57,370 nucleotides of DNA from Bacteroidota bacterium (GTDB taxonomy: Bacteria; Bacteroidota; Bacteroidia; Chitinophagales; Saprospiraceae), in NCBI GenBank assembly GCA_016124585.1, contig WGNL01000040.1, positions 1-57,370 on the forward strand. Direction: 5' to 3'. A program made the position numbers and the translations under genes. The notes under the pieces were generated by a model. That model did no database searches. It was not told the origin of the DNA and saw nothing but the letters and a program-made list of their open reading frames with translations. Of the stretch, positions 12,134-21,507 are shown in pieces (the stretch's first letter is position 1; each line of letters starts with the position of its first letter).

Positions 12134-13309
12134 ATGGTAGTTCAACAATACGATGTAGTGGTGATTGGTTCAGGTCCTGCGGGTGCTACGACGGCAAGGA
12201 TAGCTGCGGAAAACGGTTTGAAAGTATTGCTTTGCGACAAGCGCCAGGAATTAGGAGCACCTATTCAGTGCAGTGGTGCGGTAAGCAGGCATGGTTTAGA
12301 GTCAGCGGGAGTCGAGCCTTCTGACGAATATATTTTGGAGCCAATCTATGGTTTTGGAATTTATGATTCGAATGGTGATTCAACGACTATTGACTATCGC
12401 CAAATTAAACCAGACGAATATGGTGAGGGAGAAAACCGGAAGCCTCTGGGTTATGTCGTTGACCGCCGCCGTTTTGATAGGTATTTGATGACGATGGCGG
12501 AAAGAGCTGGAGTAGAAGTTTGGTTGAAAACAGAAGGCATTGGTTATCAACCAATTGAGGATGGAACTTGTGAAATTCAACTTCGTCGGTTCAATGAAAA
12601 ATTAACTGTAAAAGCCAAGGTTTTAGTCGGTGCAGATGGGCTGCAATCGCAAGTCGGAAAATGGGCAGGGTTGCGAACGCATATAAAATTGACCGAATTG
12701 GCCAGTTGTCTTCAGTTCATAGTTGATAAGGTGGAAACAGCTGGATTGTTGGAAATCGTGACAGGTCATGAATGGGCGCCGGGCGGCTACGCATGGGTAT
12801 TCCCAAAGGGAAATGGATACGCAGAAATCGGACTCGGCGTAATTCGAACCATGACCAAACTGAATGCCCAAGAACAGCTTGACCATTTTATCAAGCAGTC
12901 TTTTTTCAAAGAAAGATTCAGCAATTGTCGCATCTTGGAAGTGCAGGGTGGGGGAGTGCCATTGGCTGCGCCACTTAAAACACAATATGCTGACAACCTG
13001 ATATTGGTGGGGGATTCAGCCCGTCATGTGAATCCAATTACTGGCGGTGGAATCCATACAGCATTGAGTAGCGGCGTCATTGCTGGTAATTTTCTGGGTG
13101 AATTATTGAAAACCCATAAAATCCCGAACAGGAAAAACCTCAAAACATACCAAGACCTATGGCTGGAAGATATGGGCAATAAAATGTGGCAATTATATGA
13201 GGTAAAAAAAGAGATTTTCAATACTTCAGATATAGCTGTCAGAGATAAAATGCTTTATAATACCATGTCTGAATATTTCAGTCCTAATTCTGAGTATAAG
13301 AAAATATAG
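12134..13309 (+). CDS. Geranylgeranyl reductase-family flavoprotein
   Basis: 391 residues. An FAD-binding Rossmann start (VVVIGSGPAGATTARIA), GAPIQCSGAV with the family's C46, GYVVDRRRFDRYL, the substrate motif Y-x-W-x-F-P (219-224) followed by G-x-G (233-235), and the second FAD motif GDSARHVNPITGGGIHTA (from 293) are all present. That set is typical of geranylgeranyl reductases (ChlP and archaeal lipid reductases), which saturate the prenyl chain of geranylgeranyl diphosphate or of a prenylated lipid. It is the first gene of an operon with a ferredoxin, a tocopherol-type methyltransferase and a homogentisate-type prenyltransferase, so a phytyl or partly reduced chain for a prenylquinol is the likely product. 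Ferredoxin is the likely electron donor. Confidence 0.85.
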   Translation: MVVQQYDVVVIGSGPAGATTARIAAENGLKVLLCDKRQELGAPIQCSGAVSRHGLESAGVEPSDEYILEPIYGFGIYDSNGDSTTIDYRQIKPDEYGEGENRKPLGYVVDRRRFDRYLMTMAERAGVEVWLKTEGIGYQPIEDGTCEIQLRRFNEKLTVKAKVLVGADGLQSQVGKWAGLRTHIKLTELASCLQFIVDKVETAGLLEIVTGHEWAPGGYAWVFPKGNGYAEIGLGVIRTMTKLNAQEQLDHFIKQSFFKERFSNCRILEVQGGGVPLAAPLKTQYADNLILVGDSARHVNPITGGGIHTALSSGVIAGNFLGELLKTHKIPNRKNLKTYQDLWLEDMGNKMWQLYEVKKEIFNTSDIAVRDKMLYNTMSEYFSPNSEYKKI

Positions 13310-13310
13310 T

Positions 13311-13383
13311 GATTGAAGGATTGAATGGGTGAAGGATTGAATAATTTATATGGTAGTCCTTACATTCATTCAATCCTTCAATC
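13311..13383. repeat. Intergenic inverted repeat with GATTGAAG units
   Basis: A perfect 17-bp inverted repeat (13311-13327 with 13367-13383) made of GGATTGAA-like words, placed between the reductase and ferredoxin genes. A second, shorter pair (TGAAGGATTGAA and its complement) is nested. It ends 15 nt before the ferredoxin start and could form a hairpin in the operon mRNA. Confidence 0.6.
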
Positions 13384-13397
13384 CTTCAATCATTACC

Positions 13398-13664
13398 ATG
13401 AAGCAACCCGTCATATTTCAAATCGGTTGGAATGCCTGCATCAAATGCGGGGCATGTGTGGCCGTATGCCCGCAGGAAGCGGGTTTTATCAGTGATTTCG
13501 ATACGATTGCTGTTGGAAAACCATGCGATATAGCCTGTATGGTCTGTGAGGATATTTGCCCGGTTTCCACTATCACCCATGAATTGGTGGAGGCGGGTAT
13601 GAATGGCAGGGGAACGCCCTATTTTACATTTAATGGAAATGGCAAAAAACTCGTGGAGGTATGA
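13398..13664 (+). CDS. Ferredoxin with two [4Fe-4S] motifs
   Basis: Starts at ATG 13398 (MKQPVIFQIG); the frame is open further upstream but that part lies in the intergenic repeat. 88 residues. The first cluster motif is C14-x2-C17-x2-C20-x3-C24-P; the second is C43-x3-C47-x2-C50-x3-C54-P. Such small ferredoxins pass electrons to reductases. A neighbouring ferredoxin is required by the Methanosarcina geranylgeranyl reductase, so this one is the probable donor for the reductase upstream. Its stop overlaps the methyltransferase start (ATGA at 13661), indicating translational coupling. Confidence 0.85.
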   Translation: MKQPVIFQIGWNACIKCGACVAVCPQEAGFISDFDTIAVGKPCDIACMVCEDICPVSTITHELVEAGMNGRGTPYFTFNGNGKKLVEV

Positions 13665-14497
13665 CTTTGAACGAGAAAATCAGGCATTTCTATGACACTT
13701 CCACGAACCTTTGGCTTGACACTTGGGGTGAACACATGCACCACGGATATTATGGAGCGAATGGCTTGGAAAAAAAGGACCACCAACAGGCTCAGACTGA
13801 CCTAGTGAATGAGCTTTTGAGTTGGGGAAATGTATTGCAAGCTAATCAAGTTTTGGATGCGGGTTGTGGTGTCGGCGGTAGTGCAAGGCATTTAGCTAAA
13901 CGATTGGGGGCAAATGTTAAAGGCTTGACGCTCAGTCCTGTACAAGCAGCCGAAGCAAAGATATTGAATAAAAAAGCAGGACTAAGTGACGAAGTAGAAG
14001 TCATCGTCAAGGATATGCTCACACTCACACCTGCTGATGGCGCATTTGATTTGGTTTGGTCAATGGAAAGCGGTGAGCATATTCCAGATAAAGTGCGGAT
14101 GTTGCAAGCTTTTTATGACGTCTTGAAACCCGGCGGTAAACTCTTGATGGCTACTTGGTGCATCCGGGATGAACCTCCAGCTTTAAACATTGAAGAGAAA
14201 AAACTGCTGAAAAAAATAGGCGAATTATACCATATCCCACCAATGATTTCCATCGAAAAATACCAAGGGTTGGCGCAAGAGGCTGGGTTTTCTGAGGTGA
14301 AAACAGGTGATTGGACAAAGGCAGTCTCACCTTTTTGGAAAGCAGTGTTGCTATCCGCCATGCGTTTCTCCAGTATAATTGGATTACTAAAAGCTGGATG
14401 GCCAGCCATCCGAGGGGCTTGGGCATTGCAGTATATGATGAAGGGATATCAATCGGGCGTGCTAAAATTTGGCGTACTACAAGCAAAAAAAGCATGA
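13661..14497 (+). CDS. SAM methyltransferase resembling gamma-tocopherol / MPBQ methyltransferase
   Basis: 278 residues. The start FYDTSTNLW (10-18) and GEHMHHGYY (23-31) closely follows the N-terminal signature of plant and cyanobacterial gamma-tocopherol methyltransferases. SAM motif I is VLDAGCGVGGSARHLA (64-79), followed by GLTLSPVQAAEA and WSMESGEHIPDK, again tocopherol-methyltransferase-like. In that family the enzyme methylates the aromatic ring of a prenylated benzoquinol or tocopherol. Its neighbours (prenyltransferase, reductase) fit the same substrate class. Which ring position is methylated, and whether the substrate is cyclised, cannot be told. It overlaps the next gene by 4 bp (ATGA at 14494). 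Confidence 0.85.
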   Translation: MTLNEKIRHFYDTSTNLWLDTWGEHMHHGYYGANGLEKKDHQQAQTDLVNELLSWGNVLQANQVLDAGCGVGGSARHLAKRLGANVKGLTLSPVQAAEAKILNKKAGLSDEVEVIVKDMLTLTPADGAFDLVWSMESGEHIPDKVRMLQAFYDVLKPGGKLLMATWCIRDEPPALNIEEKKLLKKIGELYHIPPMISIEKYQGLAQEAGFSEVKTGDWTKAVSPFWKAVLLSAMRFSSIIGLLKAGWPAIRGAWALQYMMKGYQSGVLKFGVLQAKKA

Positions 14498-15384
14498 ATT
14501 TCATTGTCAATTTTATACGATTTTCTCGGCTGCACACAGTCATAGGCACCACCTTGAGTATTATTGCTTTGTATTGTCTAGCGCAATCTTATGCAGTTTT
14601 GAATATACAACATTTTAGCCTGCTTTTACTGACAATTATATGTTGTCTAGGTTCCAATATCTATATCGTCGGACTGAATCAAATCACTGATGTTGAAATA
14701 GACCGCATCAACAAACCTTATCTGCCATTGGCTTCTGGCGCTTTTTCGATGCGGCTCGGATATATCATCATCACAGTATCTGTACTGATTTCATTGATAT
14801 TGGCTCTGTTTTTTGGGAAATACTTATTGCTGACCGTTTTGTTGAGTTTGGCATTGGGTACGGCATATTCACTACCGCCATTTCGATTAAAGCGCTTCTA
14901 TTTTTGGGCTGCCTTTTGCATCATTGCTGTGCGTGGATTGATAGTGAACTTGTTGCTATTTCTGCATTTTCATCATACTATCAACAATAGACAGGATATT
15001 CCTGTAAACGTATGGCTTCTGACTGCCGTTATCTTTGTTTACAGTGTCGTAATTGCATGGTTTAAAGATATTCCCGACATGGAAGGCGACCAGCAATTCA
15101 AGATTAACACACTTACTTTACGGTTAGGCGCTAAGACGGTTTTCTTTATTGGAAACGGCATGATTGGCTTGATTTATATATGCCTCATATTGCTTCCTTT
15201 TTTCACTGCGCTGCACATCAATCAAGTATTCTTCTCAACTGCGCATTTAATTATGTTGCTATTATTGGGCGTCGCAGTCTACCGTACTAATTTGACCGAA
15301 AAGAAATCAATAGCCATCTTTTATCAGTTCTTCTGGCTTTTGTTTTTTATGGAATATGCCACTTTTGCTATTGCAGCTTATTGA
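14494..15384 (+). CDS. UbiA-family prenyltransferase, homogentisate phytyltransferase-like
   Basis: The ATG at 14494 overlaps the methyltransferase stop and gives 296 residues, the usual UbiA size; the longer frame from 14311 is an overlap artefact. About eight or nine membrane helices are visible. The first Asp motif is N62-QIT-D66-VEI-D70 followed by RINKPYLPLASG, a hallmark of homogentisate phytyl/geranylgeranyl transferases (VTE2 type). The second is KD192-IP-D195-MEG-D199. UbiA enzymes for menaquinone, heme O or chlorophyll have different words here. The reaction would join a prenyl diphosphate to homogentisate with loss of CO2. Tail preference (phytyl, geranylgeranyl, solanesyl) is unknown. 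No tocopherol cyclase is in the window. Confidence 0.85.
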   Translation: MNFIVNFIRFSRLHTVIGTTLSIIALYCLAQSYAVLNIQHFSLLLLTIICCLGSNIYIVGLNQITDVEIDRINKPYLPLASGAFSMRLGYIIITVSVLISLILALFFGKYLLLTVLLSLALGTAYSLPPFRLKRFYFWAAFCIIAVRGLIVNLLLFLHFHHTINNRQDIPVNVWLLTAVIFVYSVVIAWFKDIPDMEGDQQFKINTLTLRLGAKTVFFIGNGMIGLIYICLILLPFFTALHINQVFFSTAHLIMLLLLGVAVYRTNLTEKKSIAIFYQFFWLLFFMEYATFAIAAY

Positions 15385-16339: not shown

Positions 16340-19300
16340 TTAAATTCGACCAATTATCAATTGTTTGGCGACTGCTCGTTTTCCGGGTACATTGACCCAA
16401 ACGATATAATGGCCTTCGTGCAATTCCCTGACATCCATTTGATAGTATTTACTGGATACTTCGTCAATGTCAATTCGTTTCATCAGCACGCCTAGATTAT
16501 TGAAGACTTGAATATTCACGCCCTCTATTCCTACCGCTTTTTCAAGATTGATATTCACGAAATTATTGGCAGGGTTCGGGAATAAAGCATAGTCCTCTAA
16601 ATCATCGTAATGCAATTTAGCCATTTCAGAATAAGCCACTGAACCATTGGATAAATGCAGTTTTATACGATAAAAATTATCGCCGACCGCTGGCTCAAAA
16701 TCATAATTGCTGTAAAGCTCAGCCGCTGTACCACCTTTAGAGGCAATGGTTCCAAATGATTGGAAGCTCAGGCCATCCAGACTGCGCTCCAATTCATATT
16801 CATTGACCAAATTCCCAGCATTATGTATCCAAGTGATTTCAGCATGTTCCAAGTATTTGTTCGGATAAATCTTGAACACTTCCCCAGCAACGCCCGTCAA
16901 AGCGGTTGGAACATTCACGGTCTGATTGACTTCGCAAAGCTGCTGGTAACTTGCGTCGTAATATTTTACATAAACATAAAAACTGCCTCCGCCTACACTA
17001 ACAGTTCGAGTGGCGCCACCACAATCCCCGAAGCAATTGAGTACTGGTTGCCAATTGCTCGTAAATACTTGAAGGGAGGTGACAGGTGCGCCATCCAAAC
17101 CTGAGACATTGATAGCCCCGGGTGAAGTTGAAATATGAACATTGGCGCAGTCAGGAGTTCCGTTTCCACCACCACCGCCGCCAGCGGGCATCACCTCAAA
17201 AGGCCGCATCATGTCGTGGTCTTCATGTGATAAGATGTGGCAGTGCCAAACAAATTTACCAGGCAAATCAAATCTCACCTTGTAACGGGCCACATGCCCC
17301 GGCGGAACGATGTACGTGTCCTTCCAGCCCATCTCGTTCGGTTCTGGCGCAATCGGTGCGCCCAACATTTGGATGTTCGTCAACTGGCTGGTAATCGGGT
17401 CAAGGTCGCCAGTGAATTCCTGCCGATTGACCAATTGGAATTCTTGCTGGTGGACGTGGATGGGGTGCGCATCGCCCGTATTGTTGTAAATCTCCCAAAT
17501 CTCCGTTTCATTGATGACGGGGTTTTCACTGGTCGGATCCATCCACCGTAGCGCCCCCGCTTGGGCAGTGCCAAGGCTTGGCTGCAATCGGCCAAAATCA
17601 TCTTCACCTTCCAGCAACAGCAATTGACGGGTATTCGTCTCCTGGCCAAGGTATTGGATAGGCTGGCGCAAACTGTTTGGAATCGTGAAGGAAGCCGTTG
17701 CGTTCGTGCCCACATTGAACTTCATGATTTGCCCAGTAGTGGCAGGGTCGGCAGGCATTTGTGCCGCAGCCAATCCCATGAATGGCTCATCTGGCCCAAA
17801 GTTCTCAAGAGTCACCGATTGGCCTGCCATCGTTGAAAAGTCAATCACGATGTCGGCCCGTTCGCCTGGTGCCAAAACGAGTTGGTTCAGCGTTACTGGG
17901 CTGTTCAGGAAGCCACCCTCCGTTCCGATTTGCTGGAAATTGGCATTGTTTGACAATTTGAAAATATAAAAACGGGAGTCGGAAGCATTCAGCACCCGGA
18001 AGCGGTACTTCGTCGGCTGCACATCCAGTTTAGGCCAAACCATACCGTTTACAAGGATATAATTTCCAAAAAACTCAGGGAAAATAGTAGGCTCGATGGC
18101 TGGATTGGTGGGGAAATCCGCTGCCTCGGGGTCGCTCAACAGCGCCGGGAAATACATCGAACCATCTGCCGAGAACTGCTTGTCCTGCACGATTAGCTCA
18201 CGCTCGTAATTGCCTGTCGGCAGGTTCATGGAAAGCTCGTTGTTGTCACGCAGCAGGTACATGCCAGCAAGGCCAGCATACACGTTCAGGCGTGTGATGC
18301 CGAGTGCATGATCGTGGTACCAAAGCGTGCCTGCCTCTTGGTCGTTGCTGTAATGGTAGGTTTGCTTCTTGAATTCAGCACCCGTTTCCGCCCAATTTTG
18401 CGTGAACCATGCTTCTGGATAGCCATCGCTCGCCGATTCAACATGACCGCCGTGCAAGTGAACTACTGTCGCCACGCCGTTAGTCGGGTGCGCCATATGG
18501 ATGGTGTGGTCAACGGGCAGCAAATGGTGGTGCGCTGTGCCAAGGTTGTTGATCCATTTCACATCCACGGGTATGTCTTTTTTGGTAACAAAAGTAGGTC
18601 CGAGGTACATTTTGTTGCCGTTGTAGCTGTAGCCCCAAGTGGTCGTATTTACCGGATTGCCGTTGGTATCAAACAGGCCGAGATACTGGCTGCTCTCCTC
18701 CATTCCGATATTGTAGGTGCCACCGTTCATGGCATTGATGCGTGGTGGAGAAGGCAAGTTGTTCACGAATTTCGGGTGTTGGTCAGCTGGAACCACGGAA
18801 GCAGTCGGAGCGCCACCGACCGTCACGTTCAGGTTTTTCTCGCAAATCAGCGCATAGCCTGCCGTGTAAAATTTAGCGTAAACGATGTAATCACCTGCCG
18901 GGGCACTCACCGTTTGCGAAGCACCACAATTTGCGAAGCAGGAATAAACGGGCTGCCAAGTCGAGGTGAAAACTTGCAGTGAACTGATTGGCGCACCATC
19001 CAAACCTGTGACGCTGATGCCAACAGCCGTGGGCGTGATGTTGATATTCGCACAATCAGGTGAGCCGCCTCCACCGCAGTCAACGGTCAAACTGATGATA
19101 TTGGATTCCATGTAAGTGCCACAACCTGCCCGGCGGGTGCAGCGCAAATAGCAGGTGTTGTCACTAACGGTACCGGGGTTGTAAGTCAATCCGGTTTGAC
19201 CTGGAACCAACGACCAATGCGGGTCTAGCCCAGCGATAATGGCATCCGCATTCGTCGTTGGGGCGCTGCAGGAAGTGGTGCTTTTTAGCCAAATGGTTTC

Positions 19301-21247
19301 CAAACTGCCAGTGCCGCCGCTAGGCGAGGTGCAGTTGGTGATGTTCGGTGCAGCCGTGTTGCAAACCGTAGTTGTTGCTGCGCAATTGGCACCGAAGCCA
19401 ATCGTTCCGCCACTGGTCACGTTGTCGCAGGTGCTGATGGGCGTGCCCGCACAGGAACAGCCATCGGCTTGAATGACATCGTTCGAAGTGTTCGGATTAG
19501 CATCGTTGCAAGGTGTTCCCGGTGCAGCTGGCAGGGCAGCGTTGTTCGGTTGGCAATCTTGAAAGTCGCACACACCGTCGCCGTCCGTATCGCCGCCTTG
19601 GCTGGCGCAAGGTGAACCTCCCGTCACGGTGACGTTGAGCTGTTTCTCACAAATTAAGGCGTAGCCAGCAGTATAGTATTTGGCGTAAACTTGGTAGCTG
19701 CCAGCGGGAACGTTCACGGTTTGCGAAGCGCCACAGTTTGCGAAGCAGGAGTAAATCTGCTGCCAGGTGCTGCTGAAAACCTGAAGCGAGCTGACCGGAG
19801 AACCATCCAAGCCTGTAACGGTGATGCTGCCATTTCCAACCGTGATGTTGATGTCAGTATCGCAGTTCGGGCCATTGTTGACTGGGGTTCCAGCACAGGT
19901 GCAGCCATCGGCTTGAATGATGTCGTTAGTGGTGTTGGCATTGCCGTCGTTGCAGGCAGTGCCGGGGGGTGCGGGAATGGCGGGGTTGTTCGGCTGACAG
20001 TCCTGGTTATTGCAAACCCCGTCACCGTCGGAGTCGCCACCTTGATTGGCACAGGCCGAACAGGCCACCGTTTTTACCACATAAACATTGTTGATGCTCC
20101 ATTCGATGGCGTTGTTGGTGAGGTAGCTCTCCGTGCGTACCGGAAAGGAGGTCATGCCCCCAGTCAAATAATTGCTGACGTCATAGGTGTCAATATCCAG
20201 GTTTGGTGCCGTGCTGCCGTTCAGGGTATTGTCCCCGATGAAATTATCGTTGATGTAAAACTTTTCCCCTTTGTAATTGTCGCCCTCCCAAGTCACGTTG
20301 GTCATTTGCACCTGCGGCGAGCATGAGCTTGGGATATTGAGTTGGTCGAGGGTGTTGCAAACGATGCCAGCAGGCCAGTAGGCCCGGAAGCCGTCGTACA
20401 CGTTGATGCTAGCTTGTGGCACATTGTTGTTTTGATAAACGACGACCAAAGCCCAGCCACCGTAGGCACTGTAACCTTGGCAGTATTGACCGCTTTTGTT
20501 CCAAGTCAGGTTATTCACGGCGAAGGTGCCATTGCCGCTCACGAGGTTCGTCACGTTTGCGAAAGCACCGAAAAACGTCATGTTCCAAGTCGCATCCTGT
20601 AGTGGGATGCTAAACGTGCGTTGGGCATTCACGGTCGTACCATTAAGGGTCACAGTATTGTCGGCACTGCCACTGCCCGACCAATAGAGGTAGGCCGCTG
20701 CCACCGTGGAGCCGCTTGGCATGTTCAGCGAAGCAGAGGTGTTGTTCACCTCGTTGGGGCAGAGCTCGTTGGTACTCTCCGTATTTCCGATGATTTTGTA
20801 GTCGTATTTTCCACTGAAAGTCTGGTACTTCGTGATGGGAGTTCCGCCCGATGCATTGTTGTTGCCGCAGGCACCACATCCGCCGGAGTTGAAGTCGTCG
20901 TTTTGGGAGAATGACCAGTTGCAGGTGTAACCGCCTAGCCAAGTTCCATCTGTTTTGCGGTAAACCCACTCTTCGCCCCAAGCTGTGGAGGTGGTCCAAT
21001 TAGCACCACCGTTGATGGTCGTTTTGTAGGATTCGCCGAACCATGAGTTTTTATAAACCTTGATGGACTGGCAGCCTGTGTTGTTGATGGTAAGCGAAGT
21101 GGCGTTTGCGGTTACACTCAGTAAAAGTGTCATTAAAATAAAAAGTGCAACCCGATATTTTTGCCAAAAACCAAGTAGGTTTTGCTGGCCACCGGAAGCT
21201 GCATTTTCATTTTTCCGCAAAGCGTGAAATGTAGCGTTGAAGTTCAT
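16340..21247 (-). CDS. Giant secreted multicopper oxidase with DUF3344-like, metal-binding and T9SS domains
   Basis: ATG at 21247 (1635 residues) is preferred over a GTG at 21280. Order: long signal peptide to about residue 50; small beta domain (TINNTGCQSIKVYKN); DUF3344-like domain (~140-400; VAAAYLYWSGSG, GYSAYGGWALVVVYQN); two MopE-like loops with DGDGVC and DCQPNN near 405 and 555; two copies of a ~85-residue beta domain (TGLDGSPVSSLQVF...CFANCG); multicopper oxidase (~850-1360) with ligands in H930-L-H932, W976-YHDH, H1261-PIH-V-H1266 and W1334-HCHILSH; a third copy of the beta domain; a type A T9SS tail (LFPNPANNFVNI). All type 1, 2 and 3 copper sites look intact, closest to bilirubin-oxidase/CotA-like laccases. 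It should act on the cell surface or outside, oxidising phenols or metals. Ends at a shared terminator. Confidence 0.9.
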   Translation of the reverse strand: MNFNATFHALRKNENAASGGQQNLLGFWQKYRVALFILMTLLLSVTANATSLTINNTGCQSIKVYKNSWFGESYKTTINGGANWTTSTAWGEEWVYRKTDGTWLGGYTCNWSFSQNDDFNSGGCGACGNNNASGGTPITKYQTFSGKYDYKIIGNTESTNELCPNEVNNTSASLNMPSGSTVAAAYLYWSGSGSADNTVTLNGTTVNAQRTFSIPLQDATWNMTFFGAFANVTNLVSGNGTFAVNNLTWNKSGQYCQGYSAYGGWALVVVYQNNNVPQASINVYDGFRAYWPAGIVCNTLDQLNIPSSCSPQVQMTNVTWEGDNYKGEKFYINDNFIGDNTLNGSTAPNLDIDTYDVSNYLTGGMTSFPVRTESYLTNNAIEWSINNVYVVKTVACSACANQGGDSDGDGVCNNQDCQPNNPAIPAPPGTACNDGNANTTNDIIQADGCTCAGTPVNNGPNCDTDINITVGNGSITVTGLDGSPVSSLQVFSSTWQQIYSCFANCGASQTVNVPAGSYQVYAKYYTAGYALICEKQLNVTVTGGSPCASQGGDTDGDGVCDFQDCQPNNAALPAAPGTPCNDANPNTSNDVIQADGCSCAGTPISTCDNVTSGGTIGFGANCAATTTVCNTAAPNITNCTSPSGGTGSLETIWLKSTTSCSAPTTNADAIIAGLDPHWSLVPGQTGLTYNPGTVSDNTCYLRCTRRAGCGTYMESNIISLTVDCGGGGSPDCANINITPTAVGISVTGLDGAPISSLQVFTSTWQPVYSCFANCGASQTVSAPAGDYIVYAKFYTAGYALICEKNLNVTVGGAPTASVVPADQHPKFVNNLPSPPRINAMNGGTYNIGMEESSQYLGLFDTNGNPVNTTTWGYSYNGNKMYLGPTFVTKKDIPVDVKWINNLGTAHHHLLPVDHTIHMAHPTNGVATVVHLHGGHVESASDGYPEAWFTQNWAETGAEFKKQTYHYSNDQEAGTLWYHDHALGITRLNVYAGLAGMYLLRDNNELSMNLPTGNYERELIVQDKQFSADGSMYFPALLSDPEAADFPTNPAIEPTIFPEFFGNYILVNGMVWPKLDVQPTKYRFRVLNASDSRFYIFKLSNNANFQQIGTEGGFLNSPVTLNQLVLAPGERADIVIDFSTMAGQSVTLENFGPDEPFMGLAAAQMPADPATTGQIMKFNVGTNATASFTIPNSLRQPIQYLGQETNTRQLLLLEGEDDFGRLQPSLGTAQAGALRWMDPTSENPVINETEIWEIYNNTGDAHPIHVHQQEFQLVNRQEFTGDLDPITSQLTNIQMLGAPIAPEPNEMGWKDTYIVPPGHVARYKVRFDLPGKFVWHCHILSHEDHDMMRPFEVMPAGGGGGGNGTPDCANVHISTSPGAINVSGLDGAPVTSLQVFTSNWQPVLNCFGDCGGATRTVSVGGGSFYVYVKYYDASYQQLCEVNQTVNVPTALTGVAGEVFKIYPNKYLEHAEITWIHNAGNLVNEYELERSLDGLSFQSFGTIASKGGTAAELYSNYDFEPAVGDNFYRIKLHLSNGSVAYSEMAKLHYDDLEDYALFPNPANNFVNINLEKAVGIEGVNIQVFNNLGVLMKRIDIDEVSSKYYQMDVRELHEGHYIVWVNVPGKRAVAKQLIIGRI

Positions 21248-21507
21248 AGTCAAATGAGTTTTGGTATTAATAATTCGCACTTGGCTTTACTATCACAAAT
21301 ACAGATAGCGCAAAGCCAAGCATGTAAAACATGCAGTAGTGACAGGGAAAAAATACCGTGATGTTAGGTCAAGACAAGGTTGTACGGGTGGCGGAAGGCC
21401 ATCGATGGTTTCAAGTAGTTAGGACTTCAACGTGAGTTTGGATTCGAATGGAATGTGAGCAAAGGTAAAAACTGGCAGGTTTTATGAGGCATTCTTCACA
21501 AAAAAAT
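21248..21507 (-). promoter_or_regulatory. Upstream region of the multicopper oxidase with a -7 box
   Basis: On the minus strand a full -7 box TACCTTTG lies at 21467-21460, some 210 nt before the ATG, so the leader would be long. A small hairpin (GCATGT/ACATGC, 21320-21334) lies in it. No good -33 box was found. No gene is seen here. Confidence 0.35.

What the first reader, a model, noticed from the sequence alone, without database searches (positions are those of the whole stretch)
12134..15384. Prenylquinol (tocochromanol-like) operon in a non-phototroph
Four genes in one coupled unit (ATGA overlaps at 13661 and 14494): a geranylgeranyl-reductase-type flavoprotein, a 2[4Fe-4S] ferredoxin, a methyltransferase with the GEHMHHGYY start of gamma-tocopherol methyltransferases, and a UbiA enzyme with NQITDVEID...KPYLPLASG as in homogentisate phytyltransferases. 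Together they contain the prenyl reduction, ring prenylation and ring methylation steps of tocopherol synthesis. No tocopherol cyclase is nearby, so the product may be an open-chain benzoquinol. Such a set is known mainly from plants and cyanobacteria.
Basis: partly seen in the sequence, partly recalled or inferred. Interest (0 to 1): 0.78.

Follow-up and report, generated by a model that had tools for sequence, protein, structure and literature searches.

The report
Vitamin E-type operon in Saprospiraceae bacterium
A bacterium that is not known to photosynthesise carries a gene cluster, with partner genes elsewhere in its genome, that looks able to make a vitamin E-like antioxidant, a compound known from plants, algae and cyanobacteria.

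Summary
Window 12134-15384 encodes a ferredoxin-linked geranylgeranyl reductase (GGR), a 2[4Fe-4S] ferredoxin, a gamma-tocopherol-methyltransferase-type enzyme (MT) and a homogentisate phytyltransferase (HPT; 346.7 bits, curated cut-off 226). Both ATGA overlaps are real; GGR is not coupled to the ferredoxin gene. HPT and MT group with cyanobacterial HPT and its neighbour methyltransferase. 'No cyclase, open-chain product' needs revision: the genome has one tocopherol-cyclase-family gene on another contig and HPPD, and two Calditrichia MAGs carry the cyclase in the same-strand cluster with HPT. HPT occurs in 29 of 298 sampled genomes of the family, own included. GGR is in 20 of 29 HPT+ but 1 of 269 HPT- genomes. 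A second methyltransferase resembling plant VTE3 is in 23 of 29 HPT+ genomes but not in this one. Best reading: a tocochromanol pathway with archaeal-type GGR/ferredoxin supply; predicted product beta-tocopherol here, alpha-tocopherol in relatives such as Flavilitoribacter nigricans. Chemistry is untested. The cyclase is distant from cyanobacterial VTE1 and occurs in 102 of 269 HPT- genomes, so ring closure is the least certain step.

The parts
12134..13309 (+). geranylgeranyl-reductase-type flavoprotein (391 aa)
   Evidence: TIGR02032 225 bits, cut-off 158.8; GGR catalytic domain PF22578; GxGxxG, Cys46, RxxFD, PxxYxWxFP, LxGD (meaning of the motifs from PMC10821996 passages); closest solved chain 3oz2, digeranylgeranylglycerophospholipid reductase, E 6.6e-54
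13310..13397 (+). intergenic hairpin between GGR and ferredoxin (imperfect CAATCCTT repeats facing each other)
   Evidence: -40 kcal/mol against shuffled mean -18.7, z -6.7; repeat matches
13398..13664 (+). 2[4Fe-4S] ferredoxin (88 aa), proposed electron donor to GGR
   Evidence: Fer4 families; eight cysteines; next to GGR in 14 of 14 fetched Saprospiraceae relatives that have GGR near HPT, though not found near GGR in Calditrichia L160
13661..14497 (+). gamma-tocopherol-methyltransferase-type SAM methyltransferase (278 aa)
   Evidence: groups with the cyanobacterial HPT-neighbour methyltransferases 99/97; WGEHMHHGYY; ATGA overlap with ferredoxin
14494..15384 (+). homogentisate phytyltransferase, UbiA family (296 aa)
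   Evidence: NF009525 346.7 bits, cut-off 226; one clan with cyanobacterial HPT, 100/99; ATGA overlap with MT

Best explanation
The operon is the core of a tocochromanol (vitamin E-type) pathway in a bacterium of a family not known for photosynthesis. HPPD (contig C24) makes homogentisate. GGR, fed electrons by the adjacent ferredoxin, saturates the C20 prenyl chain to the phytyl level. HPT condenses homogentisate with phytyl diphosphate, with loss of CO2, to give 2-methyl-6-phytyl-benzoquinol (MPBQ). The cyclase-family protein (contig C13) closes the chromanol ring and MT methylates it. The two HPT+ genomes of the window's genus lack the VTE3-like enzyme that 23 of 29 HPT+ genomes have, so the predicted end product here is beta-tocopherol (MPBQ to delta to beta), and alpha-tocopherol in relatives with that enzyme. 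Likely role: a membrane lipid antioxidant beside the respiratory quinone. Shown by sequence: the genes, their family placement, synteny and co-occurrence. Inferred: every reaction, chain length, ring closure, product and role.
For: HPT over the curated equivalog cut-off and in one clan with cyanobacterial HPT, 100/99. MT sister to the cyanobacterial HPT-neighbour methyltransferases; MT lies upstream of HPT within 7 kb in 34 of 56 cyanobacterial loci (loci). HPPD in the own genome and over cut-off in 25 of 29 HPT+ genomes. GGR in 20 of 29 HPT+ against 1 of 269 HPT- genomes. Cyclase family (E <= 0.001) in 26 of 29 HPT+ against 102 of 269 HPT-; by genus, counted by hand, 17 of 18 against 53 of 94 (p 0.0025). 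In the own genus 2 of 2 HPT+ genomes have cyclase and GGR, 0 of 4 HPT- have either (p 0.067). Cyclase in a same-strand cluster in Calditrichia L157 (CYC, C2, MT, HPT) and L160 (CYC, C2, MT, HPT, GGR). A putative phytol-kinase/phytyl-phosphate-kinase fusion in 6 of 29 HPT+ and 0 of 269 HPT- genomes, next to HPT or one gene away in three, points to a phytyl donor. Delta to beta and gamma to alpha by VTE4: PMC7999835 passages.
Against: No chemistry. The cyclase family is far from cyanobacterial VTE1 (branches 6.1 and 3.9; 21-22% identity), occurs in 102 of 269 HPT- genomes and HPT+ and HPT- rows intermix in its tree, so it may act on something else. It was found in none of the 28 fetched HPT neighbourhoods of Saprospiraceae relatives. 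The own cyclase departs at two sites 99% conserved among 70 rows (H230, S232). Three of 29 HPT+ genomes have no cyclase match (G529, G537, G646). Nine of 29 HPT+ genomes lack GGR; four of those nine have the kinase fusion, the other five (three of them 95-99% complete) have neither, so the donor there would be unreduced or unknown. Calditrichia L160 has GGR without a ferredoxin match nearby. Genomes in the co-occurrence tests are related, so p values overstate. The species could use the quinol for electron transport.
Confidence: 0.62

Rival explanations
1. One reading: the operon ends at an open-chain methyl-phytyl-benzoquinol (methylated once more by MT), used as antioxidant or electron carrier; the cyclase-family protein has an unrelated substrate.
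For: The cyclase gene is unlinked in the own genome (C13) and was found in none of the 28 fetched HPT neighbourhoods of relatives; 102 of 269 HPT- genomes keep the cyclase family; it is remote from VTE1. Plastoquinone-type benzoquinones do occur in non-phototrophic Nitrospira (PMC12324825, abstract and discussion read).
Against: Cyclase lies in the same-strand cluster with HPT in two Calditrichia MAGs; co-occurrence and own-genus contrast; 23 columns, including Y-x-E-K-x-W-G, are invariant across 22 of these cyclases and 2 cyanobacterial ones from HPT loci.
Confidence: 0.25
2. The genes serve a different phytylated or geranylgeranylated lipid: GGR-ferredoxin saturates archaeal-type ether lipids or menaquinone side chains, and UbiA/MT act on another aromatic acid.
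For: GGR's nearest solved relative is an archaeal lipid reductase; the own genome also has a UbiA protein resembling geranylgeranylglycerol-phosphate transferases, below cut-off (L004).
Against: GGR is almost confined to HPT+ genomes (20 of 29 vs 1 of 269) and sits in the HPT operon; the UbiA protein is in the HPT clan and not with the L004 type; HPPD is over cut-off in 25 of 29.
Confidence: 0.09
3. Contamination or a recent accident: cyanobacterial DNA misassembled or just transferred, without function in the host.
For: HPT is rare in the phylum: over the cut-off in 2 of 395 sampled genomes, own included.
Against: HPT is in 29 of 298 genomes of the family (18 of 112 genera) at 36-69% identity among the others, in named strains such as Flavilitoribacter nigricans DSM 23189, Phaeodactylibacter xiamenensis KD52 and Neolewinella species, on branches distinct from cyanobacteria and with GGR-Fd and C2 partners that were not seen in the 56 cyanobacterial HPT loci.
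Confidence: 0.02

Closest known systems
Cyanobacterial tocopherol pathway (HPT slr1736, gamma-TMT slr0089, cyclase slr1737 in Synechocystis; gene names recalled)
   Same: HPT 45-51% identical; MT 42-51% identical and upstream of HPT in 34 of 56 loci; a cyclase near HPT in 2 of 56 cyanobacterial loci
   Different: Here GGR is the archaeal, ferredoxin-linked type (ChlP models far below cut-off); the cyclase is remote; the second methyltransferase, where present, is C2 and not the GEHIHLGHY type seen in two cyanobacterial genomes
Plant tocopherol pathway (VTE1-VTE6)
   Different: Operon-encoded, no plastid, no chlorophyll synthase over cut-off among the four UbiA genes of the own genome; the own genome lacks the VTE3-like enzyme
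Methanosarcina-type geranylgeranyl reductase with neighbouring ferredoxin
   Same: GGR with adjacent ferredoxin and the motif set (precedent in PMC10821996, passages)
   Different: Tied here to HPT genomes; ether-lipid genes were not searched for
Methyl-plastoquinone of non-phototrophic Nitrospira
   Same: Methylated benzoquinone type in bacteria without photosynthesis (PMC12324825)
   Different: The Mpq methyltransferase model NF052510 gives only 27.7 and 30.2 bits to two C2 proteins against a cut-off of 335 and is not among the 25 shown of 37 hits of MT; HPT here groups with phytyltransferases
Tocopherol cyclase-like proteins of heterotrophic bacteria (PMC4963081)
   Same: Reported in 2016 with conserved YxEKNWG-like motif and unknown function (passages); own protein has YLEKDWG
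   Different: Here the family is tied to HPT by two clusters and by co-occurrence

Membership tests
Homogentisate phytyltransferase (VTE2/HPT) | passes curated equivalog cut-off | tested here: met
   NF009525 346.7 vs 226 bits
Homogentisate phytyltransferase (VTE2/HPT) | groups with cyanobacterial HPT, not MenA, heme o synthase, 4-hydroxybenzoate transferase or ChlG | tested here: met
   one clan 100/99, 47 rows, against 25 other UbiA rows (nine of these 25 labelled)
Homogentisate phytyltransferase (VTE2/HPT) | uses homogentisate and phytyl diphosphate | not testable with these tools
   needs enzyme assay
Gamma-tocopherol methyltransferase (VTE4, slr0089 type) | groups with cyanobacterial HPT-neighbour methyltransferases, apart from paralogues | tested here: met
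   99/97 with 10 cyanobacterial rows; the 11 other rows outside
Gamma-tocopherol methyltransferase (VTE4, slr0089 type) | methylates delta- or gamma-tocopherol | not testable with these tools
   needs enzyme assay
Ferredoxin-linked geranylgeranyl reductase | conserved Cys, PxxYxWxFP, RxxFD, LxGD and neighbouring ferredoxin | tested here: met
   motif definitions from PMC10821996
Chlorophyll-type geranylgeranyl reductase (ChlP) | passes ChlP/BchP cut-offs | tested here: not met
   TIGR02023 110.7 vs 343.3; TIGR02028 61.6 vs 505.3
Tocopherol cyclase (VTE1), own C13 gene | Pfam PF14249 over cut-off | tested here: met
   80.8 vs 26.6 bits, profile positions 128-335 of 335
Tocopherol cyclase (VTE1), own C13 gene | YxEKNWG and the neighbouring FP...W.W.QxNxF motif of photosynthetic cyclases (PMC4963081) | tested here: inconclusive
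   YLEKDWG, N to D; own protein has H and S in place of Q and N in the second motif
Tocopherol cyclase (VTE1), own C13 gene | groups inside the photosynthetic cyclases | tested here: not met
   separated from two cyanobacterial cyclases by branches of 6.1 and 3.9; only two cyanobacterial and no plant sequences at hand
Complete tocopherol pathway | HPPD, phytyl supply, HPT, cyclase-family protein and at least one methyltransferase in one genome | tested here: met
   (gene presence only; function of the cyclase not shown, GGPP synthase not searched for)
Complete tocopherol pathway | MPBQ methyltransferase (needed for gamma/alpha forms) | tested here: not met
   no C2 in own genome, best match 2.4e-6; strong in 23 of 29 HPT+ genomes

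The most novel reading that the evidence does not exclude
Vitamin E is made by heterotrophic bacteria through a mosaic, operon-encoded pathway: cyanobacterial-type HPT and methyltransferase, archaeal-type GGR with ferredoxin, a distant bacterial cyclase, a plant-like VTE3 and, in some species, a fused phytol-salvage kinase in place of or beside GGR. The plant-type VTE3, not seen in the 56 cyanobacterial HPT loci held here (whole cyanobacterial genomes were not searched for it), would then have its nearest prokaryotic kin in Saprospiraceae and Calditrichia, which makes these bacteria or their relatives candidates for the source of a plastid pathway enzyme.
Probability: 0.3. Interest if true: 0.87.

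Novelty: new variant of a known kind. Interest (0 to 1): 0.72.

Why it matters
A review read in passages states that the chromanol pathways evolved in cyanobacteria and passed to photosynthetic eukaryotes (PMC7999835). A full gene set with its own operon in Saprospiraceae and Calditrichia would extend vitamin E to bacteria that do not photosynthesise, give the heterotroph 'cyclase-like' proteins left open in 2016 (PMC4963081) a function to test, and offer a prokaryotic relative for plant VTE3. Named strains exist, so one lipid extraction would test it.

Tried and rejected
Rejected: HPT as MenA, heme o synthase or chlorophyll synthase; GGR as ChlP; MT as sarcosine/dimethylglycine or cyclopropane-type enzyme (best NCBIfam hits 81.6 and 63.8 bits, far under cut-offs 550 and 650; tree). 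The expectation that HPT+ cyclases would form their own clade failed: HPT+ and HPT- rows intermix, 14 label changes for the four groups together against 24.9 in shuffles. The cyclase fold search gave the AttH/kievitone hydratase/Diels-Alderase fold (2ich, 7a0t, 7e22; TM about 0.5), which fits a cyclase but does not tell the substrate. Solved-structure searches found nothing for C2 (E <= 1e-10) and the cyclase (E <= 1). Five ORFs around HPPD are unrelated genes, so no tyrosine-catabolism cluster was seen there; homogentisate dioxygenase, GGPP synthase, rhodopsins and reaction centres were not searched for.

Limits and rows dropped: 'HPT+' means a P0004 match at E <= 1e-30. In one search at most six first-look candidates per genome were scored, likewise six and five. 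In the HPT tree 20 of the 80 loci were chosen and two were dropped as duplicates; of 55 UbiA matches only the 30 with loci were at hand, 8 of these being HPT themselves and left out, plus 3 own paralogues. In the cyclase tree 42 of 102 HPT- genomes are represented and one duplicate locus (L007) was dropped.
Full report
OBSERVATION. Ferredoxin/MT overlap as ATGA at 13661 and MT/UbiA at 14494. GGR ends at 13309 and the ferredoxin ATG is at 13398 (13350 is possible); the gap folds into a long hairpin, z -6.7, so 'one coupled unit' is true for three genes and likely, not shown, for four.

THE PROTEINS. UbiA: NCBIfam homogentisate phytyltransferase NF009525, 346.7 bits, cut-off 226; next chlorophyll synthase 71.6, cut-off 313. 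MT: generic SAM methyltransferase in Pfam and NCBIfam, no tocopherol model among the hits shown. GGR: geranylgeranyl reductase subfamily TIGR02032 225 bits, cut-off 158.8, ChlP far below cut-off; it carries the motif set described for archaeal GGRs, nearest solved chain an archaeal-type digeranylgeranylglycerophospholipid reductase. A review states that Methanosarcina GGR needs the ferredoxin encoded at its own locus (PMC10821996, passages); this is the precedent for the GGR-ferredoxin pair.

GENOME CONTEXT. The window is contig 17 of a 6.63-Mb genome given as 100% complete. It has HPPD at C24 (457.3 bits, cut-off 277) and one tocopherol-cyclase-family gene at C13. Its other three UbiA proteins are a heme o synthase, a UbiA/MqnP-like quinone prenyltransferase and a protein nearest to PRK12872/GGGP-synthase-like models but under their cut-offs; none is a chlorophyll synthase. 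Relatives named are Saprospiraceae. That the organism does not photosynthesise is inferred from the family and the lack of a chlorophyll synthase.

DISTRIBUTION. HPT exceeds its cut-off in 2 of 395 genomes drawn from the phylum, own included, but P0004 finds relatives at E <= 1e-30 in 29 of 298 genomes of the own family, own included, 18 of 112 genera, 36-69% identity in the others. A scan of public genomes kept 80 of 518 confirmed places: Saprospiraceae including Flavilitoribacter nigricans, Phaeodactylibacter xiamenensis and Neolewinella, two Calditrichia MAGs, one MAG titled Deltaproteobacteria (labelled Myxococcota in the tree output), one MAG titled only 'bacterium', and Cyanobacteria at 45-51%.

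OPERON. In 28 relatives fetched, MT lies directly upstream of HPT in 22, and GGR-Fd-(C2)-MT-HPT in 13, of which 12 have C2. C2 is a second methyltransferase of about 302 aa. A strong C2 match (E <= 1e-61) exists in 23 of 29 HPT+ genomes; it is missing in G000 (own), G606 (same genus), G497, G537, G597 and G646. Calditrichia L157 reads CYC, C2, MT, HPT and L160 reads CYC, C2, MT, HPT, GGR, all on one strand, with gaps of about 0.8 and 1.7 kb between CYC and C2; the cyclases are 43% and 42% identical to the own one, and no ferredoxin match was seen beside L160's GGR. In cyanobacteria MT is upstream of HPT within 7 kb in 34 of 56 loci, a cyclase was found in 2 of 56, and GGR, Fd and C2 in none (56 is my count of cyanobacterial titles, some loci truncated; only these loci, not whole genomes).

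TREES. HPT: all Saprospiraceae, Calditrichia, Myxococcota and 13 cyanobacterial HPT rows form one clan, 100/99, branch 5.55, apart from 25 other UbiA rows. Five Saprospiraceae HPTs (L092-L096) fall outside the cluster of cyanobacteria plus the main group (support for that cluster 85/69), so more than one acquisition is possible; direction of transfer is not resolved, and the program warned of long branches among the non-HPT rows. MT: own plus 22 relatives 100/100, with three Calditrichia/Myxococcota rows 99/89, and with ten cyanobacterial rows 99/97. WGEHMHHGYY is exact in the own protein, all ten cyanobacterial rows and 11 of 22 other Saprospiraceae rows; the cyanobacterial paralogues L266/L267 read WGEHIHLGHY.

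CO-OCCURRENCE. HPPD over cut-off in 25 of 29 HPT+ genomes (G408 and G457 have fragments, G548 and G572 only weak matches). GGR (E <= 1e-40) in 20 of 29 HPT+ and 1 of 269 HPT- genomes, that one (G512, 89% complete) sharing the genus of an HPT+ genome (Fisher 3e-23). Cyclase family in 26 of 29 HPT+ and 102 of 269 HPT- at E <= 0.001 (Fisher 8e-8); by genus, counted by hand, 17 of 18 against 53 of 94, p 0.0025. Genomes are related, so these p values overstate. In the own genus two HPT+ genomes have cyclase and GGR and four HPT- genomes have neither (p 0.067). A match spanning both halves of a two-domain protein, C-terminal DUF92 and N-terminal half read by eye as phytol-kinase-like, occurs in 6 of 29 HPT+ and 0 of 269 HPT- genomes (one match partial at a contig end, one split in two pieces), lies next to HPT or one gene away in three, and is found in 4 of the 9 HPT+ genomes without GGR. 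DUF92-only matches in 17 other genomes were not counted. VTE5 and VTE6 phosphorylate phytol in plants (PMC7999835, passages); in Euglena longa, which lacks chlorophyll, they are thought to supply phytyl diphosphate (PMC7580956, passages).

CYCLASE CAUTION. The own cyclase and its kin form one family, 39-82% identical to it in the 21 non-cyanobacterial rows aligned beside it, with only 21-22% to two cyanobacterial cyclases from HPT loci, yet 23 columns are invariant across all 24 rows including YxEKxWG. HPT+ and HPT- rows intermix, the family is kept in 102 HPT- genomes, and the own protein has two unusual residues in the second motif. The predicted fold (pLDDT 91.7) is that of AttH, kievitone hydratase and Diels-Alderases. 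So ring closure is likely (I put it at about 0.65 given the rest) but is the weakest step.

PREDICTION. VTE4-type enzymes turn delta into beta and gamma into alpha forms (PMC7999835). Without a VTE3-like enzyme the own genus should stop at beta-tocopherol; species with C2 should make alpha-tocopherol.

LITERATURE. 'homogentisate phytyltransferase' with 'Bacteroidetes' or with 'Bacteroidota' finds no paper in the held library; 'tocopherol' with 'Saprospiraceae' finds four whose listed titles are about gut microbiota or marine carotenoids (listing only); 'tocopherol cyclase' with 'non-photosynthetic bacteria' finds two and 'tocopherol biosynthesis' with 'heterotrophic bacteria' and 'homogentisate' finds two; PMC4963081, in both lists, notes cyclase-like proteins of unknown function in heterotrophs (passages). 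HPT with 'horizontal gene transfer' gave eight, none on this by title (listing only). The library lacks most subscription journals, so prior reports cannot be excluded.

Noticed in passing
window 13310-13397; L277 807-939: A hairpin of CAATCCTT repeats between GGR and ferredoxin; the exact 13-mer CAATCCTTCAATC occurs in 5 of 341 loci, four of them copies of the own locus and the fifth the cyclase contig of the same-genus genome G606: perhaps a dispersed inverted-repeat element of the genus.
   Followed up: partly
L092, L093, L094: HPT stands next to, or one gene from, a membrane protein whose C-terminal half is DUF92 (L093 scanned), a possible fused phytol/phytyl-phosphate kinase; L093 and L094 also have a 247-aa protein between the two genes, without a Pfam match in L093.
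   Followed up: partly
L001, L002, L003, L004 (own genome): Only four UbiA-family genes were found and none shows a MenA match in the scans made; menaquinone synthesis may use the MqnP-like L002 protein.
   Followed up: no
window 16340-21280, strand -: A 1646-aa ORF that looks by eye like a secreted protein with repeated domains and a multicopper-oxidase-like region, downstream of the operon on the other strand.
   Followed up: no
L159: A MAG titled only 'bacterium' holds an HPT very close to that of Phaeodactylibacter xiamenensis (branch lengths 0.03 and 0.04).
   Followed up: no
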